Positions 1 to 17,417 of a DNA stretch of 43,046 nt are shown here, piece after piece. The stretch covers positions 1 through 43,046 of the forward strand of contig USCR01000005.1 of the NCBI GenBank assembly GCA_900553295.1, written 5' to 3'. The stretch is from an uncultured Eubacteriales bacterium (lineage in GTDB: Bacteria > Bacillota > Clostridia > Christensenellales > Aristaeellaceae). Under the pieces are notes generated by a model. That model saw nothing but the letters and a program-made list of their open reading frames with translations. It made no database searches and was not told the origin of the DNA. Within the stretch, counting starts at the first letter, position 1. Every line of letters begins with the position of its first letter. A program made the translations under genes and the position numbers.

Positions 1-143
1 AAGCCGTCTTCATGGGGCACAACGGAAGTCACGTCTTCATCAAAGTCCCAGATGGTCGTCTGCGATGGATCAGCCAAGGACAAACGTGGAAACAGCCCGA
101 GCAATATCAGGCAGAGAAACGGCAATATCTTGCGTAATCTCAT
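1..143 (-). CDS. Secreted protein, N-terminal part only
   Basis: Reading frame open to the left edge of the window, so only about the first 47 residues are visible. The start ATG at 143 is preceded by AGGAGG six bases upstream. The protein begins with MRLRK, then a leucine-rich hydrophobic stretch ending SLA-DP, a good Sec signal peptide with a cleavable A-D junction. There is no lipobox cysteine. The visible mature part is acidic (WDFDEDVTSV). I do not recognise the family from this fragment; the export signal is the only supported claim. Confidence 0.6.
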   Translation of the reverse strand, partial: MRLRKILPFLCLILLGLFPRLSLADPSQTTIWDFDEDVTSVVPHEDG

Positions 144-156
144 GATGACCTCCTGC

Positions 157-792
157 TTATGGAACGGCTAGTTCCTTTGCTTGGGTATGCAAATCCTCTG
201 CGTTTTTGCTTTTCGTTGCTTCTGCGGGCTGGAAAATCACTTCCCGAACTGCTTCCGGCAGAAGCGCCTGCGCCGGCGTGTGGAGATCCAGCCATGCGCC
301 GGCTTTTTCTTTGGAGAAAATCACCGGCATGCGGTCGTGAATAAAGCGTATCTCCGCTGCAGGGGCTTGGGTTAGAATGGAAAACTCCCCCCGGCCGTCG
401 ACGACGCGGTAAATGCCTGCCATGTACATCAGCCCGTTCTGCCGGGGACGGATGGCATACTTTACCTTGCCGGTGGCTTTGCGCTCCCATTCAAAATAGT
501 TGCTGGCGGGGATCAGGCAACGGCGCTGACACATGCCGTCCCGAAAAAGCGCCCGATCCGCTGCGGTTTCGCTGCGGGCGTTGATTACACGCTTGCCATT
601 GGGAAGCAAATACCCCCAGCGCATGGCAAAGGGCGTGGGACGCATGCTGCGGCTGTTGGCAATGACGGGTACCGTATCCGATGGGAAAATTTCTCCTGTT
701 TTCACCGTCTCGCCCCGGCGCTGCAGGATGGCGATGATCTCCTCCCAGTCCTCTTCCTCCTCATCGGGGGCAATGTAATATCTGCCGCACAT
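157..792 (-). CDS. SRAP-domain protein (YedK/HMCES family)
   Basis: 211 residues, the usual length for a SRAP peptidase-like protein. The family crosslinks to abasic sites in single-stranded DNA through the N-terminal cysteine exposed after removal of Met1. The sequence starts MCGRYYI with that cysteine at position 2; it also has NYFEWE, carrying the conserved Asn/Glu, and IHDRMPVI with the catalytic-type His. The frame is open further upstream, but the start at 792 is chosen because GAAAGGAG precedes it and Cys2 must be N-terminal. It lies 29 bases downstream of the broken XRE gene on the same strand and was probably co-transcribed with it. SRAP genes occur in chromosomes and often in phages and mobile elements. 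Family call is secure. Confidence 0.93.
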   Translation of the reverse strand: MCGRYYIAPDEEEEDWEEIIAILQRRGETVKTGEIFPSDTVPVIANSRSMRPTPFAMRWGYLLPNGKRVINARSETAADRALFRDGMCQRRCLIPASNYFEWERKATGKVKYAIRPRQNGLMYMAGIYRVVDGRGEFSILTQAPAAEIRFIHDRMPVIFSKEKAGAWLDLHTPAQALLPEAVREVIFQPAEATKSKNAEDLHTQAKELAVP

Positions 793-821
793 TTTCTCCG
801 CACTCCTTTCTGGGGAAATTC

Positions 822-1633
822 TCATTCTTCCGGTCGCTTGAACAGTGGCAGGAATGCCGCCCGGAGGGCTTCCCGGTATGCGCTGTCCATGGATGTTATG
901 CCCTCGGCGGTGTCCAGAATGGCGTCCACCATTTGTTCCGGCGTGATGCCCTTGGGGCGAATACGTCCGCCATGGTTCTGCACTTGCTGTACCAATTTGA
1001 CCACTGCCGTGGATGTCAGTTTTTGAAATTGCATCATGTAGGAACGTGCGCCTTTTTTCAAATCGGCTACCAGTTCCAGAAAGGTTGCCTCCATGGCGCT
1101 GGTGTCCGTATAGAGTGGATGCTTCAAGGATTCCATATCCTGCGCCGCCTGTATGGCCGCCTTTTGCAGGGCGGGGGATTTCTTATCAGCTGCCCCAGCT
1201 TTGACAGCATGGCATTCATGCCCGCAAGGCTGGCCGCGATGGTGGCATCCTTGAACTGGGTGATCTGGTTTACCAGTTTTGCGAAAAGGGGATGCTCCAG
1301 CAGTTGGGAAACCGTTTCGGTGTTGAGCTCTCCGGAGCACAGCTTTTCCGCGGCGCCAGCGGACAGCCCCAGGGCCTCGATGTCATAATTCGTGCGATAG
1401 GGGATATCCGTCAGGCACAGCAGAAAGTCCGTGGAGACGTGCAAGATGTTCGCGGTGCCCACCAGGCTTTCGCAGGAGAGCTTGTTGGTCTGTCCGCTCA
1501 TGAAGCGGTTGAAGGCGCTTTCTGAAATGCCAATGGCCTCTGCCAACGCCGCTTGCGTCATGTTGCGCTCACGCAGTAAATCCCTGATTCTGTCCCGGGG
1601 ATTACCGGGGTTTCCGGGTAAATACGTATGCAT
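822..1633 (-). pseudogene. XRE-family regulator, frameshifted
   Basis: The first frame (start 1633, GGGGAGG upstream) encodes a helix-turn-helix of the Cro/CI type near residues 20-75 (MTQAALAEAIGISESAFNRF, then a second helical part ending FLLCLTDI). It runs into an arginine-rich nonsense tail and stops at 1124. The rest of the protein continues in the -1 frame to 822 (from KSPALQKAA to FKRPEE) as an acidic helical domain. Adding one A to the short A-run near 1183 would join LGQLIRKSPALQKAA in one frame, giving a protein of about 270 residues. So this is either a genuine single-base loss or a sequencing slip. The ligand and operator are unknown. Confidence 0.72.
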
Positions 1634-1702
1634 TTGGTCAGCCTCCCCACGCTATCTACTTACCATTATTTTCCGCACGGCGGGAAAAATCCTGCGCAGC
1701 AT

Positions 1703-1718
1703 CTTGCATTTTTGCAAG
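1703..1718. promoter_or_regulatory. Perfect inverted repeat CTTGCA-TTTT-TGCAAG
   Basis: Six-base arms with a four-base spacer in the divergent region between the XRE gene (starts 1633, minus) and the small gene pair (starts 1844, plus). Its place fits an operator for the XRE regulator, but that is inference. Confidence 0.35.
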
Positions 1719-1786
1719 TGAAAAGCCATTTTTCCCCACGGAGACGCAAATCCGCCGGTTTGCCCGTAACATCCCGAGAATTCATC

Positions 1787-1792
1787 TATAAT
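1787..1792 (+). promoter_or_regulatory. Candidate -10 box TATAAT for the small gene pair
   Basis: Perfect TATAAT 51 bases before the ATG at 1844. No convincing -35 hexamer is seen at the right distance, so the promoter may need an activator. Confidence 0.4.
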
Positions 1793-1843
1793 CATCTCCG
1801 AAGCGCGCGCATCAAAGAATCATTATCGGAGAGGAGCTAGGCC

Positions 1844-1960
1844 ATGTATCGAAACAACCGGTATCCCTGTCATCTACCGTTTTCTCCAGAACGTCCAGCC
1901 TGGGGAAAAGGAATAATTCATTCCCAAATTGTGGAAGCTAGCAACTGGAAAGGGGAGTGA
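1844..1960 (+). CDS. Small protein of 38 residues, unknown
   Basis: ATG at 1844 is preceded by GGAGAGGAG with seven bases of spacing. The frame ends at a TGA (1958-1960) that overlaps the GTG start of the next gene (GTGA), a typical translational coupling arrangement. The product starts MYRNNRYPCHLPFSPERP and is basic at the N-terminus, without a hydrophobic segment. I do not recognise it. The good ribosome site and the overlap argue that it is translated. Confidence 0.5.
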   Translation: MYRNNRYPCHLPFSPERPAWGKGIIHSQIVEASNWKGE

Positions 1961-2232
1961 AGCATTCCTTGGAAATGCGCGTCCATGACGATAAAAAGCT
2001 GGTGGAGGTCTGGCTGACCAAAGCGGAGAAGGATGACCCGCAGGTTCAGGCAGAGCTGATCACCCTCTACGCACAATACAAGTCCAGAAAATATATGGTT
2101 GCCGTGTTCCAGTCCGGGGAGCAGCCGCTGTATCCCACCATCCGCGACCTGCTGATGTATAACCGCCGGCGCTCGGCGGAAGCAGCGGTACAGCGGGCCA
2201 AACAGCCCCGTACCCAGACGCTGGAGCGGTAA
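1957..2232 (+). CDS. Small conserved-type protein, 91 residues
   Basis: Soluble basic protein with the motifs KLVEVWLT, YKSRKYMVAVFQSGEQ, then YPTIRDLLMYNRRR. From memory, similar small proteins are common in Clostridia accessory regions near recombinases. The function is unknown. The GTG start at 1957 overlaps the preceding stop; an internal ATG at 1975 is an alternative start. A strong rho-independent terminator follows at 2271, so 1844-2232 is a self-contained two-gene unit. Called as a real gene on the ribosome site, overlap and terminator; no function is claimed. Confidence 0.65.
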   Translation: MKHSLEMRVHDDKKLVEVWLTKAEKDDPQVQAELITLYAQYKSRKYMVAVFQSGEQPLYPTIRDLLMYNRRRSAEAAVQRAKQPRTQTLER

Positions 2233-2270
2233 AATTCCACCCGGCTGATGCTGCAGCACAGTCCCACCGG

Positions 2271-2305
2271 CGGAGGTTCGCATTTTCTGCGAGCCTCCGT
2301 TTTTT
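2271..2305 (+). terminator. Rho-independent terminator
   Basis: 12-bp perfect stem CGGAGGTTCGCA / TGCGAGCCTCCG, loop TTTTC, then six T. It closes the small gene unit ending at 2232. Confidence 0.92.
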
Positions 2306-2402
2306 CATACCGATACGGTCATACATAAGCGCCTTTTGGCGCACAGCCGCAGGACAGGTTCTGCGATTTTTTTACAGGGATTGGGGTGTCACCTCAACAA
2401 GA

Positions 2403-2429
2403 ATGCACAGTGTGGCTATCACTGTGCAT
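2403..2429. repeat. Perfect 10-bp inverted repeat
   Basis: ATGCACAGTG / CACTGTGCAT with a seven-base centre (TGGCTAT). No T-run follows, so it is not a standard terminator. Confidence 0.6.
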
Positions 2430-2451
2430 TGCTTGCTGGTACAATGCGTAT

Positions 2452-2480
2452 GTCAGCAGTGTACCGGTACATCTGCTGAC
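2452..2480. repeat. Nested palindrome
   Basis: Outer arms GTCAGCAG and CTGCTGAC enclose the self-complementary TGTACCGGTACA, with one unpaired T. The dyad spans 29 bases and starts 23 bases after the previous one. Confidence 0.6.
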
Positions 2481-2672
2481 CATGTACGGACGGGGTTGAG
2501 AAAAGGGAACACCTGCCTTAACATGACTGAAAGTGGCACAATTGCTTGCCAAAATAGTTTTCCCTGTAGCAGTTTAACGCGGATGCTATTCAAAAAAGAT
2601 GCATGCTGCAATATTCCTTATTTGCTATTCGTTGTATTTAAGGAATTCCCAATTTAGAAGGAGGCGAACCCT

Positions 2673-3401
2673 GTGAAAAAAATTGCTCGGTTTTTGGTGC
2701 CTGTTTGCTTTGCCATCGTTCTTTTGATGGACAGTTGTATCTCAAATATGGCACAGGCACAAATCGTCAAACCCCAGGGAGAAGTGAATGGTTCCATCAC
2801 AATGGAAGATGCCATAAGCAGTGCTAACGCTGCTGCTTCTAATGAGGGATATGATTTCTCGCAGCTTCCACTACGAGAGACCAAAGCAAATTTGGTATAT
2901 AACGAAGAAAACAATACGTATGAATGGGTTGTCAGCTATATCGTGGAAAATGAAGCAGATCCCTATTTGCTGACCACCATAGATGCACTTACAGGAACAG
3001 TCCTTTCCATCGCTAAAACAAATTACTTTGAGCTATACGATCAGTGGGAACTTCAGCGGCAGTTACCGCATGACCTTTGGTCAATGGAGGACCTGGTGTT
3101 TTTTGACGCGCTTTATCGACGGTCTGATTTGCTTCCAAGATATACGCTTCCAACAGAGAACGATCTATCGAAAGAAACGGCTATTCAAGTCTCTCGGGAG
3201 GCGCTATTCAACAAGTTCGATCTTTCAAATGCTTCTTTGGACAAATATGAATGCTCAGCCACTCTTATGCAAGATATTGGCAATCAACGAAAATGGTATG
3301 TATGCTTTGTAACCATAGAAAAGCCTACCCAAGCAAATGTACAGTATCAAGTAACATTAGATGCCCAGACCAGTGAAGTAATTTTCTGTACAGAAAACTA
3401 A
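2673..3401 (+). CDS. Secreted PepSY-like protein, low GC
   Basis: 242 residues. GTG start at 2673, with AAGGAGG upstream. The signal peptide (MKKIARF, hydrophobic core to about residue 24) has a likely cleavage after AQA near residue 30. The mature part has two similar modules: an N-terminal one with YEWVVSYI and TTIDALTGTVL, and a C-terminal one with KETAIQVSREALFNKF followed by KWYVCFVTI and VTLDAQTSEV. The pattern of an amphipathic helix, then strands ending D-A-x-T-G/S, is typical of PepSY/YpeB-like domains, thought to inhibit or anchor cell-wall enzymes. The second half of the protein at 28548 has the same layout. The gene is visibly AT-richer than its neighbours, a sign of separate origin. 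Confidence 0.7.
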   Translation: MKKIARFLVPVCFAIVLLMDSCISNMAQAQIVKPQGEVNGSITMEDAISSANAAASNEGYDFSQLPLRETKANLVYNEENNTYEWVVSYIVENEADPYLLTTIDALTGTVLSIAKTNYFELYDQWELQRQLPHDLWSMEDLVFFDALYRRSDLLPRYTLPTENDLSKETAIQVSREALFNKFDLSNASLDKYECSATLMQDIGNQRKWYVCFVTIEKPTQANVQYQVTLDAQTSEVIFCTEN

Positions 3402-3523
3402 TAAATGTATAACATAATCCTAATTTGATATTAATAAAAAAGTTTAGTAGTTGTTGCACGTAATTATCATTTAGAAAAATTTTTCTTCATAAGATCAACG
3501 GGAACTGTTGAGAAAGAGACTAC

Positions 3524-3571
3524 AAAAAATGAGATAGGCTGCTCTGAAAGGTGTTGCCTATCTCATTTTTT
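3524..3571. terminator. Bidirectional terminator
   Basis: AAAAAATGAGATAGGC and GCCTATCTCATTTTTT form a 16-bp perfect stem with a 16-base loop. It serves both the gene ending at 3401 (+) and the one ending at 3651 (-). The rest of 3402-3650 is AT-rich and shows no gene. Confidence 0.9.
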
Positions 3572-3650
3572 ATTGCAGGTCTACTTTGCTATGCCTGTTT
3601 TCGAGCATCCGATTTTTGTTTTGGGGCTCAACAATTGTTAGTAAGTTTGC

Positions 3651-5840
3651 TCATAGAGACTCCAACTGAACCATCCGAGCAAGGCGCTGCAACAGTTGCA
3701 GCATCTCCTGCGTGCTGAGGATGCCTTCTACATATTGATTGGTATAGGTACTAATGGGGTCGGTCACCGATGCAAAAAACGTTGCTTCCCCGCTTACGTG
3801 AAAGAATGGCCGGTAGCTTTCCATCCGCTCAATATCCTTGGGGGAAACATACCATCGAAGCTGCTCCAAAAAGCCAAGGGAGGAATTGATGTCCTTGATT
3901 TTCAACTGCGCGTCCTTTAAGGCTTGCGGCTCCAAAAAGTCTAGGGAAGCTATCAGCCGGTTCCGCTCTTCTTCATAGGCTGCGTATTCAGCCGCGTATT
4001 CCGGCCTTTCCACAGGGGCAATGGGCGTGTCGGACAAAAGCATGCTGGTTTCAGCCTTTGTATAGATCCTGGCCGATTCCAGGCGAGCCACTGCTTTTTC
4101 CATATCCAGATAGGAGCTGACGGTTTCCAGGTAGGCTAATGCCGCTTCCTGGTGCTCGCTGTAGGGATTGATCAGATATACCTGGAGCTGAATGTCATAC
4201 ATAGGCTCAAGCCCCTCCGACAACACCAGCGGCAGCGGAATCCATCCATTACTTACCGAGAGCATATCGCCCATATCCTGCTGGCTCAGCAGCGGAAGTT
4301 CCAGCTCTCCATTCACCATCCGTGGGGCAGCCAGCGGAGTGCTGTCCACAAAGTATTGGTCGATCTGTGCCAACAATTCCGGGAAATCATGGCTGATAAA
4401 GTCCGGTGCCACGTGGTCTTTTTCGCATTGCTTGATATACATATTCAGTAGCAGGGTAAAGGCGCTGTGGCGCAGCGAGCGCTGCGTATCCCAAACTACT
4501 CTGCCCAGGTCTTGGGATTTTTCATATTGTGCCGCGAGCCACGGAAGAAATTCGGAAAAAGTACGCGGCAAATCTTCCTCCGTCATGCCGAACTCTTCCA
4601 TGGTTTTGGTGTTAATGCAAAGCATGTGTGCGGTGGCAGTTTTGGGGAATGCCGCATAATGTCCGTCCTGCTTGAGCAGCGCGGTAAGATTCGGGTCCAT
4701 GGCATTCATGGCGGAAACCAGCGTGCTACTAGCGTCCAGGGGAACATAGTACCCCTTTTGCATGAGCACCGACAAACAGCCGGTGGATACATCAATCCAA
4801 TAGATATCGTAGGCGTTATTCTGCGTAATCATGTCCTGCATAAGTTTTTCCGCGTCAAAGTACATACTCGTAGGAAGTGACAGAACCCGGACGTCATGAT
4901 TCGCTTCAAAGTCTTGCAGGATCTGCTTTTCTTCAAGACTTGCGATGGTCAGGAGCGGCAGGGACGTATCCGGCTGCTCCACCACAAACAGGCTGCTGTA
5001 ATCTCCCAGCACATAGCGGTCGCCAGCTACACATGAAGGAAACCAGGCTGCTTGACCGGAAAGAGGTGAGCGGTCGTAGGCTTGTATCCCAGTGCTTTCC
5101 ATGTACTGATAAACTTGCAGTGAGTCAGCCAGATAAAGACAAGCGCCGTCCTCCGAGACAGCCAGGCAGCATGCTGGCAGCTCCAGCTGCGCAAGGATGG
5201 TTTGCTCGCCGGTGGCCAGATTTACCCGCCGAAGCTCACCGCTGGACAGGGAGGCATAGATGGATGCTTCATCCGCAGGAGCGATGGACACAACAGAGGG
5301 AACAGCCACTTCTCTGATTTCTCCACGTTCACTGTCGCCATAAAGCAGCACACTTCTTTCAGCGCTTGTCCAGAGCAGCGCCGCCCAGGAAGTATACGTA
5401 AGGGGCGCAAATGCCGCAAGATCCACATAGCGCTGTTCATCCTGGCTGATGAAAAAGGCTTCGCAGTTCAGCGGCGCGCCGCAGGGATTGCATGCTTGCA
5501 TTTCCTGCTCCATGCAGTACAGGGATAACGCTTGCTCCTCGTAGGAGAGCACATAGAGCAGCCCATCCCGGTACGCAATGCGGCTATTGGGGCAAAGATC
5601 GGAATAGACCAAGGTGGATTCCCCATAAGACGCCTCCGCCAGGGAAACGCGGTAAAGCGCTCCATTCGTAAGCACCCAGAGCAGGTCTCCCGAGGCCGCA
5701 ACACTGACCGGCCGTGCAAGCTCACCAGATATGCCGTTCAAATTCAGCGACTGCGGAGACGCAAAAGCTGTACCCATAAAGAGAAAGGTAACGCAGCATA
5801 TCAGAGCAGCAATGCGTAGTTTTTTCCAGAGTACTTTCAT
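3651..5840 (-). CDS. Secreted propeller/solute-binding fusion protein
   Basis: 729 residues from the ATG at 5840 (AGGAGGG upstream; a longer in-frame start lacks a ribosome site). Signal peptide MKVLWKKLRIAALICC to TAFA-S, with no usable lipobox. Residues ~40-300 show repeating strands of the type GDLLWVLTNGALYRVSL, consistent with a beta-propeller. Residues ~300-729 resemble a family 1 extracellular solute-binding protein: SLPLLTIAS, DFEANHDVRVL, YDIYWIDVSTG, GYYVPLDASS, then a helical C-terminal lobe ending LARMVQLESL. Such proteins normally deliver sugars to ABC permeases, but no permease or ATPase gene is near. The lack of a lipid anchor and the propeller suggest a sensing or wall-associated role; that is inference. 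Confidence 0.72.
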   Translation of the reverse strand: MKVLWKKLRIAALICCVTFLFMGTAFASPQSLNLNGISGELARPVSVAASGDLLWVLTNGALYRVSLAEASYGESTLVYSDLCPNSRIAYRDGLLYVLSYEEQALSLYCMEQEMQACNPCGAPLNCEAFFISQDEQRYVDLAAFAPLTYTSWAALLWTSAERSVLLYGDSERGEIREVAVPSVVSIAPADEASIYASLSSGELRRVNLATGEQTILAQLELPACCLAVSEDGACLYLADSLQVYQYMESTGIQAYDRSPLSGQAAWFPSCVAGDRYVLGDYSSLFVVEQPDTSLPLLTIASLEEKQILQDFEANHDVRVLSLPTSMYFDAEKLMQDMITQNNAYDIYWIDVSTGCLSVLMQKGYYVPLDASSTLVSAMNAMDPNLTALLKQDGHYAAFPKTATAHMLCINTKTMEEFGMTEEDLPRTFSEFLPWLAAQYEKSQDLGRVVWDTQRSLRHSAFTLLLNMYIKQCEKDHVAPDFISHDFPELLAQIDQYFVDSTPLAAPRMVNGELELPLLSQQDMGDMLSVSNGWIPLPLVLSEGLEPMYDIQLQVYLINPYSEHQEAALAYLETVSSYLDMEKAVARLESARIYTKAETSMLLSDTPIAPVERPEYAAEYAAYEEERNRLIASLDFLEPQALKDAQLKIKDINSSLGFLEQLRWYVSPKDIERMESYRPFFHVSGEATFFASVTDPISTYTNQYVEGILSTQEMLQLLQRLARMVQLESL

Positions 5841-6180
5841 GATTGACCCTCCTGAAAATGTACCTGTGGTGTTCACATCAGCGGCTGATTTCGTGTCAGA
5901 TCAAAATGCGGTTATGCTCCAGCGGCAAGTATGGACGTATACTGGCTGATCATATTTTATCAGACAAATAGCGAATAAGTCAAGGAATGCTGAGCAAGGG
6001 ATATCTCAGGATGCAGCAGCTTTTGTTTCACGCTTGGATGTTTTACCCGGAACACAGACTTGCATTCTTGCTTTTTCAGGTGTACAATATTATCTGTAAA
6101 TAGCAAAAATGATGTCGATAAAACGGAAAACACGCGATTCCATGGCACCCGAAACCGTCTGAAAGGGGAGCGATGTACCT
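5841..6180. other. Divergent intergenic region
   Basis: No gene seen. The left part holds the ribosome site of the minus-strand gene at 5840; no clear promoter for it was found. The right part holds the recombinase promoter listed separately. Confidence 0.5.
6060..6088 (+). promoter_or_regulatory. Vegetative promoter of the recombinase
   Basis: TTGCAT, 17-base spacer, TACAAT, with TG just before the -10 (TGTACAAT). Predicted transcript start near 6095, about 85 bases before the ATG at 6181. Confidence 0.7.
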
Positions 6181-8346
6181 ATGACCGAACGCTTTGACAT
6201 TGCGGGCTACTGCCGTATCTCGGTGGACGATGAACTGGACCGGGATAACGTCTCCATCGAAAACCAGAAAGCCATCATCCAGGATTTTGTGAAGCAGCGC
6301 TTCCCGGATAGTACCCTCACCTTTTACGAGGACCGGGACCGCTCCGGCTACACCTTTGAGCAGCGGGAAGGCTACCAGGCTATGCGCAAGGGCCTCATTA
6401 CCCATAAGTATGATATCCTGGTGGTCAAGGACTTCTCCCGTTTTTCCCGCCGCAATTCCCGCGGCCTGGTGGAACTGGAGGACCTGCGGGATGCCGGGGT
6501 GCGTATCATTTCCATCGGCGACGGCATCGACTTTCCCAACGACGATGACTGGCTGAAAATCCAGTTCCAGTTCCTGATTAACGAAATGCCCGTCACCGAT
6601 ACTTCAAAGAAGGTGCGCAACGTCATCAAGCGCCGCCAGCAGGACGGGCAGTGGATCTGTGCCGCGCCCTACGGATATATCGTCAATAAGCGCAAGGAAT
6701 TCGAAATCGTCCCCACGGAAGCGGAGATCGTCCGCCGCATCTTCCACCTTTACAATGAGGAGGGCTGGGGTTACAAGAAGATTGCCAATGCCCTCACCGA
6801 GCAGGGTGTGCCCACCCCACGTATGTCCGAGCAGCTACGAAAGGAAGCCGGTGGCGAGGAATACAAGCGGGAGGTGAAGGCAGCCTGGGCCATCGTTACC
6901 GTGCAGGGCATCCTCGATAACGATTTTTACATCGGCACCCTCCGCCAGGGAAAGACCACCCGCGCCAAGATCAATGGCAAGGACGTGAAGCGCGACGACG
7001 GCGAGCACGTGGTCATTGAGAACCACCATCAGCCCATCATCGATTACCGTACCTTTGCCATTACCAAGGCCCTGCGGGAAAAGCGTACCCGCACCAATTA
7101 CCGGGGGGTGAAGAAGTATGACAACTTCTATTCCGGCTTCCTGGTTTGCGGAGATTGCGGCAGCCCCATGTTCGCCATGAGCCGCGGCGATCTTGCGCCT
7201 GCCTATACCTGCGGCACCTATCATCGCCGTGGGACGGCCGGGTGTACCTCCCATCATATCCGCGTGGACAAGCTGGATGAACTGGTGAAAATATACGTGA
7301 AGAAGGTCATGGACTCCTCTGCCTCCATGCTGAAGCGTCTCAACGCCGATCTGGCCCGCGAAAATGATCAGGTGACCGAGACCGAGCAGTCCGCGGATCA
7401 CCTGGCGGAGGTGCTGGAGGATCTGCAACAGGAGCTGAAGGCCACCAAGCGCCAGCGTATCCGGGACATCATGAAGCACCCGGAGCAGGAAGAACTTCTG
7501 GAGGCCACCTATGACGAGCTGGAGAACGACCTGCAGCGAAAAATTGAAGGACTGAACCATCAGATTGATTTGCTCAGCGACCGGCGCAATACCATCATTC
7601 AGGTGAACCGCACTGCGAAAACCGCCCTGGATGTGTTCCAGGACATCCTGGAAAAGGACAAGCTGGACCGTAACGACCTGGAACTGATGATCCGGGAGAT
7701 CCGGGTGTATGAGGACCATCTGGAGATGAAGCTCCAGGCGGACATCGACGCCCTCATTCGCAGCAGCAGCCTGGAGGATACCGTAAATTTTAAGGGGGAC
7801 ATCGAAAACAGAAATTGCCGGCTTGTCCAGAGGGCCCGGAACCAGAAGGACAAGGTTTTCGATGTCCATGTTGTCAGTGACGGCGACCCGCTGGAGATTT
7901 ACACTGACCGGGATGGCGAGGTCATTCTGAAGAAATATTCCCCCATTGGGGAGATGTCCTCGTTTGCCAAGGATTATACGGAATCCCTGTTCCGTTCTCT
8001 GGGACATATTGCGTGCATCGTGGATAGGGACCAGGTTGTGGCGGCCAGCGGTGTAAGCAAAAAGGAACTGTGGGATAAGCCCATCAGCCATGATTTGGAG
8101 GCGGCCATTGCCAATCGCCAGACGGTGGCGCTAAACCGGCAGAATGGCAGCCGTACCGTAGCGGTTACCAGCGAGGAAGATCCTTCTGGCTATACCGCGC
8201 AGGTGCTTTCTCCCATTATTGCCGATGGGGAAGCCATTGGCGCGGTGCTGCTGCTTAGCCGTGAACAAGGCGCGCGCATGGGGGATACGGAGCTGAAGGT
8301 GGCAGAAACGGCTGCGGGCATTGTGGGGCGGCAGATGGAGCAATGA
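6181..8346 (+). CDS. Large serine recombinase fused in frame to SpoVT C-terminal part
   Basis: 721 residues. Residues 1-~560 are a large serine recombinase: resolvase domain with catalytic Ser14 in GYCRISVDDE, DRDRSGYTFEQR, KDFSRFSRRN; recombinase domain from ~160 (APYGY to NDFYIG); zinc ribbon with Cys323, Cys326, Cys344 and Cys355; coiled coil ~375-475. Such enzymes integrate and excise elements at short att sites. From Gly568 to the end the sequence is SpoVT (GDPLEIYTDRDGEVILKKYS ... RQMEQ): the end of the AbrB-like hairpin plus the GAF sensor domain. SpoVT normally has ~30 residues before this point (VRRIDDLGRVVIPKEIRR type), missing here. No stop separates the parts. AAAGGGGAG lies 10 bases before the ATG. 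The 3' end overlaps the next gene (ATGA). Confidence 0.93.
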   Translation: MTERFDIAGYCRISVDDELDRDNVSIENQKAIIQDFVKQRFPDSTLTFYEDRDRSGYTFEQREGYQAMRKGLITHKYDILVVKDFSRFSRRNSRGLVELEDLRDAGVRIISIGDGIDFPNDDDWLKIQFQFLINEMPVTDTSKKVRNVIKRRQQDGQWICAAPYGYIVNKRKEFEIVPTEAEIVRRIFHLYNEEGWGYKKIANALTEQGVPTPRMSEQLRKEAGGEEYKREVKAAWAIVTVQGILDNDFYIGTLRQGKTTRAKINGKDVKRDDGEHVVIENHHQPIIDYRTFAITKALREKRTRTNYRGVKKYDNFYSGFLVCGDCGSPMFAMSRGDLAPAYTCGTYHRRGTAGCTSHHIRVDKLDELVKIYVKKVMDSSASMLKRLNADLARENDQVTETEQSADHLAEVLEDLQQELKATKRQRIRDIMKHPEQEELLEATYDELENDLQRKIEGLNHQIDLLSDRRNTIIQVNRTAKTALDVFQDILEKDKLDRNDLELMIREIRVYEDHLEMKLQADIDALIRSSSLEDTVNFKGDIENRNCRLVQRARNQKDKVFDVHVVSDGDPLEIYTDRDGEVILKKYSPIGEMSSFAKDYTESLFRSLGHIACIVDRDQVVAASGVSKKELWDKPISHDLEAAIANRQTVALNRQNGSRTVAVTSEEDPSGYTAQVLSPIIADGEAIGAVLLLSREQGARMGDTELKVAETAAGIVGRQMEQ
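7860..7905 (+). other. Putative attachment-site junction (attR-like)
   Basis: Recombinase-type sequence changes to SpoVT-type sequence here. Left of the join the codons give VFDVHVVSD, not SpoVT-like; from GGCGACCCGCTGGAG on they give GDPLEI, a highly conserved SpoVT segment. The exact crossover bases cannot be set without the other end. Confidence 0.55.
7882..8346 (+). pseudogene. spoVT: spoVT 3' part, separated from its start
   Basis: 154 residues matching SpoVT from about residue 31 of the Bacillus protein (compared from memory) to its C-terminus, including DRDGEVILKKYSPIGEM, SLGHIACIVDRD, ASGVSKKELWDKPIS, IGAVLLLS and AAGIVGRQMEQ. SpoVT is a forespore regulator; its GAF domain tunes AbrB-type DNA binding. 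The missing segment includes the LGR and VVIPKEIR strands, so this piece alone should not bind DNA in the normal way. The GAF half looks undamaged, with no stops or frameshifts, which suggests recent interruption or continued selection. Confidence 0.85.
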
Positions 8347-8918
8347 ACCCGCTGCTGCTGTGCCTGCTCGTGGTGGCATGGATGGCAACACCGCTGGAGC
8401 TATCCCTTGTGTTAAGCGCGGGGGAGGGAGCCACGGGCCAGGCGCGCTTAAAGGTCTGGGGCATTCCCCTGCGCTGGGTTTTCCGGACGCGCCAGGAAGG
8501 CGGCCGATTACGGCTGCTGGTACGGGGCAGGCGCATCCATACAGGGGAGCGCCAGGCGCCTCCCATTACGCCAGGGCGAGCAAAAGTATGGCTGGGCACG
8601 CTACTGCGCACGGATAAGGCCAGAAAGTGGCTTTTCAACGGCATCCATCTCATCCACTGCGAGGCTAAGATTCGTCTGGCCTTAAGCGATGCAGCCCAAA
8701 CGGCGTTGCTGTCGGGGGCGTTGACCACCCTTGGCGGATGGTTGCCTGGTAAGGTGCAGCTGCACGTGATACCGGATTTCTGGAGCGGACACAGCGCTTT
8801 TGCGCTGCGTGCGGCAGTGGCCACCCGCCTGGGAACGCTGGTCATTACGGCCGCGCTGGTGCTAGCGGCATGGATCGGTGAGCGTGCCGAACATCCAAAA
8901 CATAAGGAGGGAACATGA
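8343..8918 (+). CDS. DUF2953 membrane protein (YtfI-like)
   Basis: 191 residues; the start ATG at 8343 overlaps the preceding TGA (ATGA), and its own stop overlaps the ytfJ start. There is a hydrophobic N-terminal segment (LLLCLLVVAWMAT), a basic strand-rich middle, and a C-terminal hydrophobic segment (LVITAALVLAAWIG). The order DUF2953 then ytfJ is the standard arrangement in spore formers (ytfI-ytfJ in Bacillus), and that neighbour carries the call. The biochemical role is unknown; a sporulation or envelope role is inferred from context. Confidence 0.75.
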   Translation: MNPLLLCLLVVAWMATPLELSLVLSAGEGATGQARLKVWGIPLRWVFRTRQEGGRLRLLVRGRRIHTGERQAPPITPGRAKVWLGTLLRTDKARKWLFNGIHLIHCEAKIRLALSDAAQTALLSGALTTLGGWLPGKVQLHVIPDFWSGHSAFALRAAVATRLGTLVITAALVLAAWIGERAEHPKHKEGT

Positions 8919-9346
8919 TGGAGCATCCCATTGGGGAGATGATGCAAAGCACCATGGCCAGTATCAAGGACATGGTGGATGTAAATACCGTGGTGGGGGA
9001 CCCGGTGGTAGCGGCTACCGGCGCGACGATCATCCCGGTGAGCAAGGTTTGCTTTGGCTATGTAACCGGTGGTGGCGACCTTCCTTGCGAGGAAAAGAAC
9101 AAGCTGCATCCACCGCTGGAAAGCTCCGCCTTCCCCTTTGCGGGTGGAAGCGGCGCGGGCGTTTCCGTGCAGCCGGTGGGCTTTCTGGTGGTCTCCGGCG
9201 AGGAGGTACGCATGCTTCCCGCGCAGCCGCTGACGGTGGCGGATCGTATGGTGGAGCTGCTTCCCGGCGTGGTGGAGGACATGAAGCATATTTTCTCCAA
9301 GGATGGACGTAAGCAGAGCAGCACACCCACCTATGGGGAGGGATGA
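8918..9346 (+). CDS. ytfJ: Spore protein YtfJ/GerW
   Basis: 142 residues. Clear YtfJ/GerW family: HPIGEMMQSTM, IKDMVDVNTVVGDPVV, GATIIPVSKVCFGYVTGGGD, GGSGAGVSVQPVGFLVV. The family is made in the forespore and, in Bacillus, is needed for normal lysozyme resistance or germination behaviour of spores. Two tandem ATGs (8915 and 8918) are possible; the second has better spacing from AAGGAGG. The gene overlaps both neighbours, indicating one transcript with the DUF2953 and carboxypeptidase genes. Glycine-rich middle as in the family; no signal peptide. Confidence 0.93.
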   Translation: MEHPIGEMMQSTMASIKDMVDVNTVVGDPVVAATGATIIPVSKVCFGYVTGGGDLPCEEKNKLHPPLESSAFPFAGGSGAGVSVQPVGFLVVSGEEVRMLPAQPLTVADRMVELLPGVVEDMKHIFSKDGRKQSSTPTYGEG

Positions 9347-13179: not shown

Positions 13180-13239
13180 GGGGATGTTCCTCCTTTACGG
13201 TCGGGGGAGGGAAATACCCAGCCCCGCTTCCGCTCCGTC

Positions 13240-14187
13240 TTATTCTTCGTTGGGACGCAGGCCGAGACCCAGCGCTTCCAGCTTCTGCTCGACCTCTTCC
13301 AGGCTCTTCCGGCCCAGATTGCGAACCTTCATCATGTCTTCCTGATTACGCTGCACCAGCTCGGCCACGCTGTTGATGCCGGCCCGCTTCAGGCAGTTGT
13401 ACGCACGCACCGACAGATCCAGCTCTTCGATGGTCATCTCGAGAACCTTTTCCTTCTTGTCGTCCTCGGGCTGCACCATGCTTACCGGCATTACCTGATC
13501 GGTCAGGCTCACAAACAGGGACAGATGCTCGCTGAGGATCTTCGCCGCGCCGCTGATGGCCTCATCGGGCATCAGCGTGCCATTGGTCCAAATCTCCAGC
13601 GTCAGTTTATCATAGTCCGTGATTTGCCCTACACGGGTATCCTCCACGGTGTAGTTCACCTTCCGGATGGGGGTGAAGATACTGTCCATGGGAATCACGC
13701 CAATGGGCATGTTGGGATTCTTGTTCTTGTCCGCGCTTACATAACCGCGGCCCTTTTCCAGGATCAGCTGCATTTGCAGATGCGCGTCCTCGTTCAGGGT
13801 GGCGATGTGCAGTTCGGGATTGATAATCTCCACCTCGTCATCCACATGGATGTCCGCGGCGGTAACCTCGCAGGGCCCCTGCGCGTCGATGGTAACCTGC
13901 TTGGGAGTGTCGCAGTACATCTTTGCTGCCAGGCACTTGAGGTTCAGGATCAGTTCAGTGACGTCCTCCTTCACGCCCGGTACAGTAGAGAACTCATGCT
14001 GCACACCCTCGATGTGCACAGAAGAGACCGCCACGCCAGGGAGGGAGGACAGCAGCACCCGGCGCAGGGAGTTGCCCAGGGTGTGGCCGAAGCCGCGCTC
14101 CAAGGGTTCCACAACAAACTTGCCGTAGCAGTTGTTCTGGCCAACTTCCACGCACTCGATGCGTGCCTTTTCGATTTCGACGATCAT
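13240..14187 (-). CDS. rpoA: RNA polymerase alpha subunit
   Basis: 315 residues, normal length. The N-terminal dimerisation domain shows [22 protein letters not shown], and the flexible linker carries [10 protein letters not shown]. The C-terminal domain has [20 protein letters not shown] and [20 protein letters not shown], which bind UP elements and activators. GAGGAGGG before the ATG supports the start. Fixed place between rpsD and rplQ. Confidence 0.99.
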
Positions 14188-14276
14188 TTCGTTTACCCTC
14201 CTCTAATGGTTCAAGCCTGAAGGGTAGCGTCTCCGGGAGAGCAGCCAGAGGACTGCGCCTCCCAGGACACCCCTCA

Positions 14277-14873
14277 TTACCGGGAGTAGAACTCGACGAT
14301 CATGTTCTCCTGCAGCTGCAGGTCGATATCCTCGCGGGCAGGCAGCGCATTCACGGTGCCGGTCAGGTTGGGAGCGTCAAAGGTCAGCCACTTGGGGGTC
14401 AGCACGGAAGTGCCCTCCCGCAGCGCCTTGAACATTTCCTTCTCGGCGGAGGTGGGGCGCAGGGTAATCACGTCGCCAACCTTCACGGAATAGGAGGGGA
14501 TGTCCACCTTCTTGCCGTTCACACGGATGTGGCCGTGGCCCACCACCTGACGCGCCATGCGGCGGGTCTTGGCCAGGCCCAGACGGTACACCACGTTGTC
14601 CAGACGCAGCTCCAGCAGCTGGAGCATGTTGTCGCCGGTGATGCCCTTCATGTTCGCGGCCTTCAGGTAGTAGCGGTGGAACTGCTTCTCCAGAATGCCG
14701 TAAACAAACTTAACCTTCTGCTTTTCCTTCAGCTGCGCCCCGTACTCAGAAACCTTCTTACGACGGGTGCCGCCGGGATTACGGGTAGACTTCTTGTTGC
14801 TGTAGCCCATCACTGCCGGGGAAATATCGAAGCTCCGGCACTTGCGGGCGATCGGTTGCTTATTGACAGCCAT
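14277..14873 (-). CDS. rpsD: Ribosomal protein S4
   Basis: 198 residues. Primary 16S rRNA binder of the small subunit; in many bacteria also the repressor of its own mRNA. The S4 RNA-binding domain is seen in RLDNVVYRLGLAKTRRMARQ and HGHIRVNGKKVDIPSY; the C-terminal end is NMIVEFYSR. The N-terminus lacks the zinc cysteines of some S4 forms. GAAGGAGG precedes the start. Confidence 0.98.
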   Translation of the reverse strand: MAVNKQPIARKCRSFDISPAVMGYSNKKSTRNPGGTRRKKVSEYGAQLKEKQKVKFVYGILEKQFHRYYLKAANMKGITGDNMLQLLELRLDNVVYRLGLAKTRRMARQVVGHGHIRVNGKKVDIPSYSVKVGDVITLRPTSAEKEMFKALREGTSVLTPKWLTFDAPNLTGTVNALPAREDIDLQLQENMIVEFYSR

Positions 14874-14897
14874 TGTATGTTGTCCTCCTTCAATACC

Positions 14898-15302
14898 TTA
14901 CACGCGGCGGCGCTTGGGCGGACGGCAGCCATTGTGAGGAATGGGCGTCACGTCCTTGATCATGTTCACTTCCAGACCCGCAGCCTGCAGGGAGCGGATC
15001 GCGGCTTCACGTCCGGAGCCGGGGCCCTTTACATACACTTCCACGGTCTTCAGGCCGAATTCCATGGCCGCCTTGGCAGCGGTCTCGGCAGCCATCTGCG
15101 CCGCAAAGGGCGTGGACTTCTTGCTGCCACGGAATCCCAACCCGCCGGAAGAGGCCCAGGACAAGGCGTTGCCATTGGTGTCGGTGATGGTCACGATGGT
15201 GTTATTGAAAGAAGAACGGATATGGGCGGCGCCGCGCTCCACGAGCTTCTTCTCACGGCGCTTGCGCGTTACCTTCTTGAGCTTTTGCTTGGTGGGTGCC
15301 AT
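14898..15302 (-). CDS. rpsK: Ribosomal protein S11
   Basis: 134 residues. Canonical motifs [35 protein letters not shown] and the basic end [16 protein letters not shown]. Located on the platform of the 30S subunit. GGAGGGA upstream of the ATG at 15302. Confidence 0.98.
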
Positions 15303-15351
15303 TTTTATCCCTCCGTGCCCTCATGGGGCGTATCATTGCGTCAGGCCGAAA

Positions 15352-15729
15352 TTACTTGGTGGCCTTCTTCTTGCCAGCAATGGTCTTCTTGGGACCCTTG
15401 CGGGTACGGGCATTCTGCTTGGTGTTCTGACCGCGCACCGGGAGTCCCCGGCGGTGACGTACGCCACGGTAGCAGCCGATTTCCATCAGCCGCTTTACAT
15501 TCAGGGAAACTTCCCGGCGCAGATCGCCTTCCACCTTCAGGTGATGCTCGATGTAGTCACGCAGCTTGCTGATTTCAGTCTCGGAGAGATCCTTGATCCG
15601 GGTGTCGGGATTGATGCCGATCTCCGCAATCATCTTCTGAGAGGTCGTCAGGCCGATGCCATAGATATAGGTCAGGCCGACTTCCACGCGTTTTTCTCTG
15701 GGCAGGTCGACGCCCGCAATGCGTGCCAT
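15352..15729 (-). CDS. rpsM: Ribosomal protein S13
   Basis: 125 residues. [20 protein letters not shown] start, helix-two-turn-helix ..[13 protein letters not shown].., and the C-terminal [19 protein letters not shown] tail that contacts the P-site tRNA. First gene of this cluster: no rpmJ or infA is found just upstream, unlike the usual infA-rpmJ-rpsM order. GGAGGTG lies before the ATG. Confidence 0.98.
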
Positions 15730-16011
15730 GTGTGTAATACACCTCCAAATTGTGCTTGCGGCCCATGCCGCGATGAAAGAAGCGGATTCCTCACATTCCT
15801 CCAGGCAACCCTACCAGGAAGAAGGCGCATTCGTCCGCAGCTTCGTGTCCCGCGAGGTGAATGCAGGCGGGACGGCACCACGCATCGCCGGAAGGCGCTG
15901 AGCGCAATGCCTGCCAAAAAATTTGAGAAGACTTATGGTTAACCGGTGGAACACATCCTTAGAGGAGGACATGCAGCCGCCCACCAGTCGAACCTACTCG
16001 GCAACCATTAC
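15730..16011 (-). promoter_or_regulatory. Leader of the rpsM operon
   Basis: About 275 nt between the promoter and rpsM with no credible gene. On the minus strand it contains a hairpin (near 15945-15992) whose arms ACTGGTGG and CCACCGGT enclose a second helix CATGTCC / GGATGTG. Leaders of this operon are bound by S4 in enterobacteria; whether S4 acts here is unknown. Confidence 0.45.
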
Positions 16012-16040
16012 ATTTTAGCACGAAAGCAAGAAAATGTAAA
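16012..16040 (-). promoter_or_regulatory. Promoter of the rpsM operon
   Basis: On the minus strand: TTTACA, 17-base spacer, TAAAAT, each five of six to consensus. Transcript start expected near 16005. Confidence 0.7.
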
Positions 16041-16121
16041 TATTTATTTGCCCCTTTTCAAACATTTTTTCGGGCATATGGGGAGATTTTTCGCGGGTTT
16101 CCGGGGCATGGCACGCGCAAC

Positions 16122-17417
16122 TCATTCCCCATCTGCAAGGGGGACCACCGTGCCTGTTTTTCTTGCTTTTTCGGCACGGAAAACGGCCAGATGCCCGTTC
16201 ACGGAATCCTCAATGGAAGTGCAGGAAATAGAAGGCGTTTTGCCCTGCAGCACGCGGACAAAGTCCTCCACCAGCCGCAGGTCGCCGCCCCCGTGGGTGC
16301 CGTTGGCGCCGCTCTTGTCCCCGCCGATCCCCAGATCCACGGTTTCCTCCCGCCAACCGGCTTCGCTGGCTGTATCCACGGTGCGCACCACATAGCGGGA
16401 GTCATCGAATACGCCCTTGATTTCTCCGCGGGTTCCAATGATATGTATGTTCCGCTCCGGCTTGGCCGCTCCGCCAATCATGTTCAGGGTTCCTGTGGCG
16501 CCATCGGCAAACTGCAGCAGGACCGACTGGTGATCCACCACGGTGTGGTCGCATTTCCAGACGCAGCGCCCATAGTTGCTGTTCCCCTTCAGGGAGGCAA
16601 TCTTATCCTCCAGGGTGGGATGCTCCAACCCTTCCAGGGAATCCCACACGTAAAAGGCCCAGCGGTCGGGATGATCGATATAGTGCTTTTTGGCGGAGTA
16701 AAGGCAGTCTGCTTCTATGGGACAATCCACCATACAGCGCGTGCCGGCCCTTGGGGGTGTTTTCTCCGGCGCAAACTGGAAATCTCCGCCGAAGCTGGAC
16801 ACCAGGGTGGGCCTTACGCCGCTTTTGAGCCAGATCATCAGATCCAGGTCATGGCAGCATTTGGCCAGCAGCATGGAGGCACCGCATTTTTCCTCATTGC
16901 CCCACTTGCCGCGAATGTAGGAGACCGCCAGATGATGGTAGCTCACATGTTCCGTGCATTGTATATTGATGATTTCGCCGATGTCGCCCCGCAGAAGCCT
17001 TTCCTTGATTTGCGCGTAGAAAGGCGCGTAACGCAGTACGTGGCAGATCATCACCCGGCGGCCGGTTTCCCGGGCAGTGCGCACAAGCTCCCACATCTCC
17101 GCCTCATTGACCGCGAAGGGCTTTTCCAACAGCATGTGGTATCCGGCGCGGAGCAGGGGAATGGCCGTGGAGACATGCTGCGTGTCCATGGTGCCATTGA
17201 TGATGGCATCAGCCAACTGTGGACGGGCGGCCAGCGCTTCGGCGCTTTCGAAACACATGTCCTGCGGGATATGATAGCATGCAGCTGCTTTCTTCCGGCG
17301 GATGGGATCTGGATCGGCTACTCCGACAATGGTCAGCGCTTCCGGATGGAGCTTCGCATAGGATGCATAGAGCATGGCGCGATGTCCCGCGCCTACAATG
17401 ATAGCGGAAACCGGCAT
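16122..17417 (-). CDS. Gfo/Idh/MocA-family oxidoreductase
   Basis: 431 residues from the ATG at 17417 (AAAGGAGG upstream). N-terminal Rossmann fold for NAD(P): VSAIIVGAGHRAMLYASYAK, then IINGTMD and LLEKPFAVNEAE with the Lys of the EKP motif. The C-terminal domain has CCHDLDLMIWL with the His/Asp typical of the catalytic region. An additional cysteine-rich segment (RCMVDCPIEADCLYSAKKHY, later GRCVWKCDH) marks a subfamily seen in gut Firmicutes. Family members oxidise or reduce sugars, inositols or amino sugars; the substrate cannot be told. It has its own promoter and no sugar genes beside it. Confidence 0.9.
   Translation of the reverse strand: MPVSAIIVGAGHRAMLYASYAKLHPEALTIVGVADPDPIRRKKAAACYHIPQDMCFESAEALAARPQLADAIINGTMDTQHVSTAIPLLRAGYHMLLEKPFAVNEAEMWELVRTARETGRRVMICHVLRYAPFYAQIKERLLRGDIGEIINIQCTEHVSYHHLAVSYIRGKWGNEEKCGASMLLAKCCHDLDLMIWLKSGVRPTLVSSFGGDFQFAPEKTPPRAGTRCMVDCPIEADCLYSAKKHYIDHPDRWAFYVWDSLEGLEHPTLEDKIASLKGNSNYGRCVWKCDHTVVDHQSVLLQFADGATGTLNMIGGAAKPERNIHIIGTRGEIKGVFDDSRYVVRTVDTASEAGWREETVDLGIGGDKSGANGTHGGGDLRLVEDFVRVLQGKTPSISCTSIEDSVNGHLAVFRAEKARKTGTVVPLADGE

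What the first reader, a model, noticed from the sequence alone, without database searches (positions are those of the whole stretch)
6181..8346. Sporulation regulator spoVT interrupted by a serine-recombinase element
Residues 1-560 are a complete large serine recombinase (Ser14, zinc-ribbon cysteines, coiled coil); from Gly568 the frame continues as SpoVT to its natural C-terminus. The missing 30 residues are the DNA-binding strands. Elements with serine recombinases that split sporulation genes are known (skin in sigK, and others in late mother-cell genes); spoVT as the host gene is one I do not know of. The downstream overlap (ATGA) into a ytfI-ytfJ type cluster shows that the SpoVT end sits in native context.
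Basis: partly seen in the sequence, partly recalled or inferred. Interest (0 to 1): 0.95.

Follow-up and report, generated by a model that had tools for sequence, protein, structure and literature searches.

The report
Mobile element splitting spore gene spoVT
In a number of gut Clostridia a mobile DNA element carrying its own cut-and-join enzyme sits inside spoVT, a spore regulator expected to work in the future spore itself, so restoring the gene should mean cutting the element out of the cell that lives on rather than the one that dies.

Summary
Window 6181-8346 is one frame: a large serine recombinase running at codon GAC (7885) into SpoVT from residue 32. It is no chimera: all 120 listed relatives have the same domains, and isolates carry the split. 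The missing N-terminal half was found in 37 of 45 fused genomes; in 22 it lies upstream, same strand and contig, 7-81 kb away. Rejoining 29 of these pairs gave an open spoVT frame in 29 and a near-palindromic attP (17.7 of 24 positions; shuffled 6.1). The predicted circle-form recombinase, with a conserved tail instead of SpoVT, exists in a public collection (P0122). The element moves horizontally and splits spoVT in 25 of 187 spoVT-bearing genomes of four family samples. The published intervening elements I saw sit in mother-cell genes; spoVT is a forespore gene in C. difficile, and the N half here often keeps a forespore-type promoter. Best model: a constitutive recombinase plus a conserved small protein (window 1969-2232, candidate directionality factor) excise the element in the forespore, and it reintegrates after germination. 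The split is shown; excision and its timing are inferred.

The parts
1..7884 (.). right-hand part of the element (left end lies outside the window)
   Evidence: lies left of the recombinase junction; in the relative G001 the N half is on another contig with 8.4 kb on its element side
157..825 (-). cargo: SOS response-associated peptidase (SRAP)
   Evidence: Pfam PF02586 6.5e-39
1124..1633 (-). cargo: Cro/C1-type HTH regulator
   Evidence: Pfam HTH_26 2.4e-8
1911..1940 (+). promoter candidate GAATA-N17-GGAAGCTA before the small gene, read here as sigma-F-like
   Evidence: coordinates; motif in 26 of 61 upstream regions of this gene, shuffled mean 0.05; motif drawn from the same sequences; the pattern that fits spoVT matches only 1 of 61
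1969..2232 (+). conserved small protein, 87 aa from TTG 1969 (85 aa from ATG 1975); candidate recombination directionality factor
   Evidence: upstream of the recombinase in 36 of 43 loci with at least 5 kb upstream; no Pfam or PHROG match; AF2 pLDDT 89.5
2673..3401 (+). cargo: protein with weak PepSY match
   Evidence: Pfam PF03413 E 0.0045, below cut-off
3651..5876 (-). cargo: 741-aa protein without family
   Evidence: no Pfam or NCBIfam match
6060..6088 (+). sigma-A-type promoter TTGCAT-N17-TACAAT of the recombinase
   Evidence: coordinates; sigma-A-type pattern in 24 of 43 recombinase upstream regions, shuffled mean 1.4, max 4
6181..7890 (+). large serine recombinase (residues 1-570), its 3' end containing the left arm of attP
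7861..7910 (+). attR (about 24 bp each side of the crossover)
   Evidence: dyad symmetry of the reconstructed attP in 29 pairs
7885..7886 (+). predicted 2-bp crossover GA, centre of dyad
   Evidence: centre of dyad; G017, G199 and G205 left junctions differ just right of GA while the rejoined gene reads CCC; contig L054 ends exactly at this GA
7885..8346 (+). SpoVT C-terminal part from residue 32 to the natural stop
   Evidence: TIGR02851 27-180, SpoVT_C 1.3e-43
8915..9346 (+). downstream host gene: GerW/YtfJ-family sporulation protein
   Evidence: TIGR02874 2.7e-42

Best explanation
spoVT is the attachment site (attB) of a family of integrative elements whose large serine recombinase cuts at codon 32 (GAC). 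Insertion leaves the N half with its own promoter at the left end and fuses the C half in frame to the recombinase at the right end. The attP site lies inside the 3' end of the recombinase gene, so excision does two things in one step: it rejoins spoVT in frame, and it gives the recombinase back its own tail of about 25 residues. SHOWN by sequence: the split, the shared core, the dyad, the open rejoined frames, horizontal spread, and a natural circle-form recombinase. INFERRED: the recombinase is made in growing cells (sigma-A promoter); a conserved small protein made in the forespore (promoter read as sigma-F-like) turns its direction to excision, so that spoVT is whole when sigma-F and sigma-G transcribe it; and the circle, enclosed in the spore, reintegrates at germination when the small protein is gone. 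Split and mobile element: about 0.97. Regulated excision that restores SpoVT: about 0.75. In the forespore rather than the mother cell: about 0.5.
For: N half in 37 of 45 fused genomes, 22 upstream on the same strand and contig. Rejoined frame open 29 of 29; attP dyad 17.7 of 24 (range 13-21) against shuffled 6.1 (largest of 1000 means 7.4); attB 9.4. A search with the predicted circle-form protein returned natural P0122, 596 aa, 79% identical over 100%, ending SDGDPSQTTLAQWEKYCFYMMELSKRCGW. Tail codons 9-22: pN/pS 0.45 over 406 pairs, pS near saturation. Contig L054 ends exactly at the crossover GA. In 28 split genomes sigG was found in 28 at E<=1e-60 (G010 a part only) and spoIVA in 27 over the cut-off. 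Forespore-type promoter in 21 of 32 N-half upstream regions, shuffled mean 0.94, max 4. Small gene in 36 of 43 loci, own promoter motif 26 of 61, shuffled 0.05. C. difficile: spoVT depends on sigma-F and sigma-G, and its mutant gave no heat-resistant spores (passages of PMC3738446 and PMC3789822).
Against: No reads, PCR or expression data: excision in sporulating cells is not shown. Insertions are sporadic (25 of 187) and mobile, so each may be recent and conservation of the halves may be inherited from before insertion. Eight of nine long end branches in the SpoVT-C tree are split rows, which could mean relaxed selection (intact rows were chosen by similarity, so this is confounded). P0182 is a fusion whose SpoVT part leaves the frame. 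The promoter motifs were refined on the sequences that were counted; the pattern that fits spoVT matches only 1 of 61 small-gene regions, a recalled sigma-F consensus 0 of 61, and the looser F-type pattern that gpr shares (8 of 23) also matches spoVT regions (7 of 32 split, 13 of 46 intact). Only 6 of 43 sigG matches pass the curated cut-off; gpr was found in 26 of 30 and spoIIR in 26 of 30. The small protein's role is guessed from place and conservation; PDB fold search gave nothing at E<=0.001; 7 of 43 loci lack it.
Confidence: 0.72

Rival explanations
1. Skin-like mother-cell excision: the element is cut out in the mother cell only, as for sigK or spsM, and SpoVT has moved to, or is needed in, the mother cell in these species.
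For: The published intervening elements I saw are in mother-cell genes, and confinement there keeps the element in the spore genome (passages of PMC4191935).
Against: The N half often keeps a sigma-F/G-type promoter (21 of 32); spoVT is a sigma-F/sigma-G gene in C. difficile; sigma-E and sigma-K patterns were found upstream of 0 of 61 small genes and 0 of 43 recombinases.
Confidence: 0.2
2. Plain insertion: spoVT is only a handy attB; the element knocks the gene out, carriers sporulate poorly or not at all, and occasional spontaneous excision is ordinary mobile-element behaviour.
For: Sporadic distribution and horizontal spread; fast-evolving split SpoVT-C rows; a fusion that leaves frame (P0182).
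Against: Split genomes keep sigG (28 of 28 at E<=1e-60) and spoIVA (27 of 28); rejoined frame open in 29 of 29; 0 of 25 fused SpoVT matches hold a stop; the small gene has a conserved promoter-like motif of its own.
Confidence: 0.25
3. A permanent new protein: the recombinase-SpoVT_C fusion is itself the functional product, a recombinase with a sensor domain, and no excision is needed.
For: The in-frame fusion recurs in all 120 proteins listed, and the SpoVT part shows dN/dS 0.02-0.57 in 49 pairs.
Against: The N half is kept, often with a promoter, and with an open frame; the natural circle form exists; the attP dyad is kept through coding sequence; spoVT is intact in most relatives.
Confidence: 0.04
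4. Assembly chimera.
For: Most genomes are metagenome-assembled (titles).
Against: Both halves on one contig in isolates (A. massiliensis AT3 on a 3.03-Mb contig, Pseudoflavonifractor An85, P. capillosus An386a, O. valericigenes An411); 44 distinct fusion sequences parsed.
Confidence: 0.005

Closest known systems
gin element in gerE, Bacillus cereus ATCC 10987 (PMC5595907, passages read)
   Same: non-phage element with serine recombinase and a directionality factor (GirX) splitting a small sporulation regulator gene; restriction-modification cargo
   Different: gerE acts in the mother cell; gin has three recombinases; no fusion of recombinase with the host gene stated in the passages read
skin in sigK and SPbeta in spsM (PMC4191935 and PMC5595907 passages; PMC5025042 listing only)
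   Same: serine recombinase, directionality factor under a sporulation sigma factor (SPbeta, C. difficile skin), in-frame restoration
   Different: mother-cell genes, prophage or prophage-like, excision confined to the dying cell
yin element in yabG, C. botulinum (PMC10747680, passages read)
   Same: clostridial split sporulation gene, predicted directionality factor with a putative sporulation promoter
   Different: sigma-K gene; recombinase lies downstream of the 5' half; described there as unique
Active lysogeny (comK prophage of Listeria, recalled; term seen in PMC10747680 passages)
   Same: reversible excision and reintegration as a gene switch, as proposed here for the forespore
   Different: phage, not tied to a spore compartment (recalled)
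Integrative mobilizable elements (PMC5357655, listing only)
   Same: one complete element (G025) carries relaxase and NikA-like genes
   Different: mobilization genes were identified in one element only; the others were not searched for them

Membership tests
sporulation gene-intervening element (skin type) | a sporulation gene split into two co-oriented halves | tested here: met
   of 45 fused genomes: 22 N half upstream, same strand and contig; 14 on other contigs (orientation unknown); 1 downstream (G016); 8 not found
sporulation gene-intervening element (skin type) | site-specific recombinase encoded inside the element | tested here: met
   Resolvase, Recombinase and zinc ribbon; PHROG integrase 5.3e-92
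sporulation gene-intervening element (skin type) | attL/attR with shared core and inverted repeats; in-frame restoration | tested here: met
   29 of 37 pairs analysed, 29 of 29 open; dyad 17.7 of 24
sporulation gene-intervening element (skin type) | excision during sporulation | not testable with these tools
   no reads; circle-form protein P0122 shows the free form exists somewhere
sporulation gene-intervening element (skin type) | host gene expressed in the mother cell (true of the published cases I saw) | tested here: not met
   forespore-type promoter on the N half in 21 of 32 regions; published forespore control in C. difficile. Indirect: expression in these species and the compartment of excision are untested
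sporulation gene-intervening element (skin type) | directionality factor under a sporulation sigma factor | tested here: inconclusive
   candidate small gene with its own motif 26 of 61, sigma assignment uncertain; function not shown
prophage | phage structural genes in the element | tested here: inconclusive
   none among 28 element proteins scanned with Pfam, but most cargo was not scanned; 0 relatives in viral contigs
integrative mobilizable element | relaxase/mobilization genes | tested here: inconclusive
   met in G025; not searched in the others
SCC recombinases CcrA/B/C | NCBIfam curated cut-off | tested here: not met
   109 bits against 900 for CcrB

The most novel reading that the evidence does not exclude
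A germline excise-and-return cycle: in the forespore, a sigma-F-made directionality factor and a constitutive recombinase excise the element, rebuild spoVT in the cell that will live, and enclose the circle in the spore; at germination the recombinase alone reinserts it. The recombination also swaps the recombinase's own C-terminus (a 25-residue tail when free, the SpoVT sensor domain when integrated), so integration state could feed back on enzyme activity. spoVT codon 32 is a repeated target: two further elements (G178, G077) split it at the same codons.
Probability: 0.42. Interest if true: 0.93.

Novelty: new variant of a known kind. Interest (0 to 1): 0.83.

Why it matters
Programmed excision from sporulation genes has been explained by being confined to the mother cell, which dies, so the element is never lost (PMC4191935). 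A split forespore regulator breaks that rule: either excision is heritable and reversible, or SpoVT acts elsewhere in these bacteria, or the hosts cannot finish spores. Each is directly testable in cultured gut isolates. It also offers a natural set of serine recombinases with mapped attB and attP and a candidate directionality factor, and bears on how these gut bacteria control sporulation and so pass between hosts.

Tried and rejected
Rejected: assembly chimera (isolates). Rejected: one ancestral insertion inherited vertically. Recombinase and SpoVT part disagree in divergence: recombinase dS is lower in 34 of 49 pairs (e.g. L003/L005, 0.30 against 0.99) and higher in 15, mostly the Dysosmobacter/Oscillibacter group; many dS values are near saturation. 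The split label needs 22 changes on the SpoVT-C tree, at least 9 forced by starred branches; 39 of 500 shuffles were as low. spoVT is intact in most relatives. Rejected: proof of native context by neighbours (contig C14 against intact relatives, no useful synteny). Dropped rows: one group of four parsed to one row, and L052 was lost from another, 8 of 37 pairs.

Led nowhere: viral contigs scan (0 relatives); phage and plasmid BLAST (only matches downstream of the finding); Pfam and PHROG on the small protein; PDB fold search (no hit at E<=0.001). The first attempt at gpr and spoIIR upstream regions picked wrong starts; gpr was redone (F-type 8 of 23), spoIIR was not. The sigma-F/G pattern that fits spoVT matched 1 of 61 small-gene regions, and a recalled sigma-F consensus 0 of 61. 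Promoter patterns were adjusted; the first strict sigma-G pattern gave 9 of 41 regions sorted as split and 3 of 37 as intact, with a few intact rows sorted wrongly. The 32 'split' regions include the two of G077 and G178, which carry other elements.

Literature: no paper holding spoVT + serine recombinase or spoVT + integrase + attB; spoVT + split + excision gave 3 papers, 2 listed, neither about this by title or abstract; spoVT + prophage gave 27, 20 listed, none about an inserted spoVT by title or abstract start. Only open-licence PMC was searched, so a report elsewhere is possible.

Full report
What is there. Window 6181-8346 (+) is a single open frame of 721 codons. Residues 1 to about 510 are a large serine recombinase (Resolvase, Recombinase, zinc ribbon; PHROG integrase over 5-516), and residues 569-721 are SpoVT from its residue 32 to the natural end (TIGR02851 from position 27, SpoVT_C 1.3e-43). 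The AbrB motif of the first 31 residues was not found in the window. The fusion is common: all 120 proteins listed, a capped list, have the same four domains.

Where the other half is. The window's own genome is not held. I looked for the N half in 30 genomes of related loci (E<=0.001) and in 18 further fused genomes (E<=1e-10, so weaker matches could be missed there). Of these 48, three (G024, G026, G028) have an intact spoVT. Of the 45 fused genomes, 37 have a separate N half that stops matching SpoVT at about residue 34-42: 22 upstream on the same strand and contig (about 6.9 to 81 kb between the halves), 14 on other contigs (among them G001, whose fusion, L001, is 98% identical to the window's), and 1 downstream on the same strand (G016). 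In 8 it was not found (G002, G007, G021, G092, G102, G120, G137, G142; G007 shows a partial hit). Where the sequence was read, the N half ends REGDP, or REGDR in the Butyricicoccus-like genomes, and runs into a short tail. Four isolates have both halves on one contig: Anaerotruncus massiliensis AT3 (3.03-Mb contig), Pseudoflavonifractor An85, P. capillosus An386a and Oscillibacter valericigenes An411.

The attachment site. Left and right junctions share a short core around GGYGACC. For 29 of the 37 pairs (G008, G013, G030, G139, G157, G189, G199, G207 dropped: not loaded, not parsed by the script, or cut by a contig end; for G001 the right half is the window's) I joined the flanks in a script. 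All 29 give an open spoVT frame across the junction. The reciprocal product, attP, is nearly palindromic around GA: 17.7 of 24 positions complementary (range 13-21), against 6.1 for shuffled arms (largest of 1000 means 7.4); attB scores 9.4. In G017, G199 and G205 the left junction reads GACCGG or GACAGG, yet the rejoined gene regains CCC, which places the exchange at or left of GA. Contig L054 stops exactly at that GA, as an assembly would if reads held more than one junction; this is one case.

attP lies inside the recombinase gene. Because the frame is kept across the core, the free circle encodes a recombinase ending in about 25 residues, often of the form S(Q/L)xTxxxWExFCFxMLDLAKRxGW, which at the left junction follow the SpoVT N half. 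Codons 9-22 of the tail, beyond most of the DNA arm, show pN/pS 0.45 over 406 pairs, with pS near saturation. I searched the protein collection with the predicted circle form. Among the 120 listed hits, P0122 (596 aa, 79% identical, aligned over 100%) is that form in nature. Of three other hits read, P0160 ends differently after GDP, P0182 is a fusion that leaves frame in SpoVT, and P0145 runs into another sequence. L049 also holds a recombinase with its own tail.

Mobile, not fixed. In evenly drawn samples of four families, SpoVT was found in 187 of 243 genomes and fused in 25 (4 of 35, 11 of 54, 7 of 44, 3 of 54); the four centre genomes had been chosen because they are split, so 21 of 183 without them. 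Recombinase and SpoVT part disagree in divergence: recombinase dS is lower in 34 of 49 pairs and higher in 15, with many values near saturation; the SpoVT part has dN/dS 0.02-0.57. On a SpoVT-C tree of 78 rows (44 split, 34 intact) the label needs 22 changes, at least 9 forced by starred branches; 39 of 500 shuffles were as low. Complete elements parsed run from 6981 to 35943 bp. Scanned cargo: type I and GmrSD-type restriction genes and RhuM in A. massiliensis, relaxase and NikA-like genes in G025, ATPase and nuclease domains in G006, a Wzy-like gene in G027, and, on the two G001 contigs beside the junctions, sugar-transport, two-component and peptidase genes (that both contigs belong wholly to one element is not shown). 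No phage structural family was seen among the 28 proteins scanned; most cargo was not scanned.

A conserved partner. Upstream of the recombinase lies a protein of about 85 residues (window 1969-2232): 36 of 43 loci with at least 5 kb upstream have it on the same strand within 10 kb (missing L003, L030, L031, L043, L045, L056, L183). The window's copy has no Pfam or PHROG family; the model is confident (pLDDT 89.5), without a PDB match at E<=0.001. Place, size and conservation make it the candidate directionality factor; this is inference.

Timing signals. Recombinase genes have a sigma-A-type promoter in 24 of 43 upstream regions (shuffled 1.4). The N half has a sigma-F/G-type promoter in 21 of 32 regions (shuffled 0.94), and intact spoVT in 24 of 46 (shuffled 1.28). 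The small gene has a motif of its own, G.ATA-N15-18-GGAA(A/G)(A/C/G)TA, in 26 of 61 (shuffled 0.05). [quoted passage not shown] describe for sigma-F (PMC3789822, passages), and a looser F-type pattern matches 21 of 61 small-gene regions and 8 of 23 gpr regions. Against this, the F-type pattern also matches spoVT regions (7 of 32, 13 of 46), the pattern that fits spoVT matches only 1 of 61 small-gene regions, and a recalled sigma-F consensus 0 of 61. Sigma-E and sigma-K patterns match 0 of 61. The patterns were tuned on the same sequences. In C. difficile spoVT depends on sigma-F and sigma-G, and its mutant gave no heat-resistant spores (passages of PMC3738446, and PMC3789822). In 28 split genomes sigG was found in 28 at E<=1e-60 (over all 43 searched genomes 6 pass the curated cut-off; G010 has a part only) and spoIVA in 27, all over the cut-off, G006 missed; gpr was found in 26 of 30 and spoIIR in 26 of 30.

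Why this is unusual. Abe et al. state that excision of the elements known to them is confined to the mother cell, which keeps the element in the spore genome (PMC4191935, passages); gerE and yabG, split in later reports, are also mother-cell or sigma-K genes (PMC5595907; PMC10747680; passages). spoVT is a forespore gene in C. difficile. If SpoVT is needed there, the element must leave the chromosome that survives. A serine recombinase without its directionality factor is expected (established knowledge) to catalyse attP x attB only, so reinsertion after germination would follow without further parts. That cycle is my best model; excision and its timing are not shown.

A repeated target. In G178 and G077 the same codons are split by other elements: by eye the G178 junctions form a different dyad, and in G077 the recombinase frame converges on the left half.

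Limits. No reads and no expression data were available, the window's left half was not seen, and the literature searched is open-licence PMC only.

Noticed in passing
L144, L178 (G178); L145, L123 (G077): spoVT is split at the same codons by two other elements; in G178 the halves lie about 240 kb apart on opposite strands.
   Followed up: partly
L030, L172, L089 (G016): The N half lies 19 kb downstream of the fusion on the same strand, with core-looking genes upstream of the fusion; excision here would put spoVT on a small circle, or the contig is rearranged.
   Followed up: partly
L169-L171 (G025), L049/L181/L182 (G026): Extra N halves: G025 has two N halves and one fusion; G026 has an N half, a recombinase with its own tail, and an intact spoVT on one contig. 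Tandem or past rearrangement, not explained.
   Followed up: partly
L044 9544-12406 (Angelakisella massiliensis): Small gene and recombinase sit directly upstream of an intact spoVT, without a fusion; looks like a settled remnant.
   Followed up: no
L053 10001-11769 (G028): Recombinase broken into two frames in a genome with intact spoVT.
   Followed up: no
L077 7850-8110: A copy of the small gene about 2 kb upstream of an intact spoVT, possibly a scar of a lost element.
   Followed up: no
P0145: A recombinase of this family running after VVSSGE into an unrelated sequence, perhaps a secondary attachment site.
   Followed up: no
window 13232-17405: Two 'Bacteriophage sp.' records from human faeces (MT839913, MT835905) match parts of this stretch at 73-79%; 15364-15747 matches rpsM in a Vescimonas replicon, so the phage records may hold host DNA.
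   Followed up: no
SpoVT-C tree: Eight of nine long end branches are split rows; relaxed selection or sampling bias.
   Followed up: no
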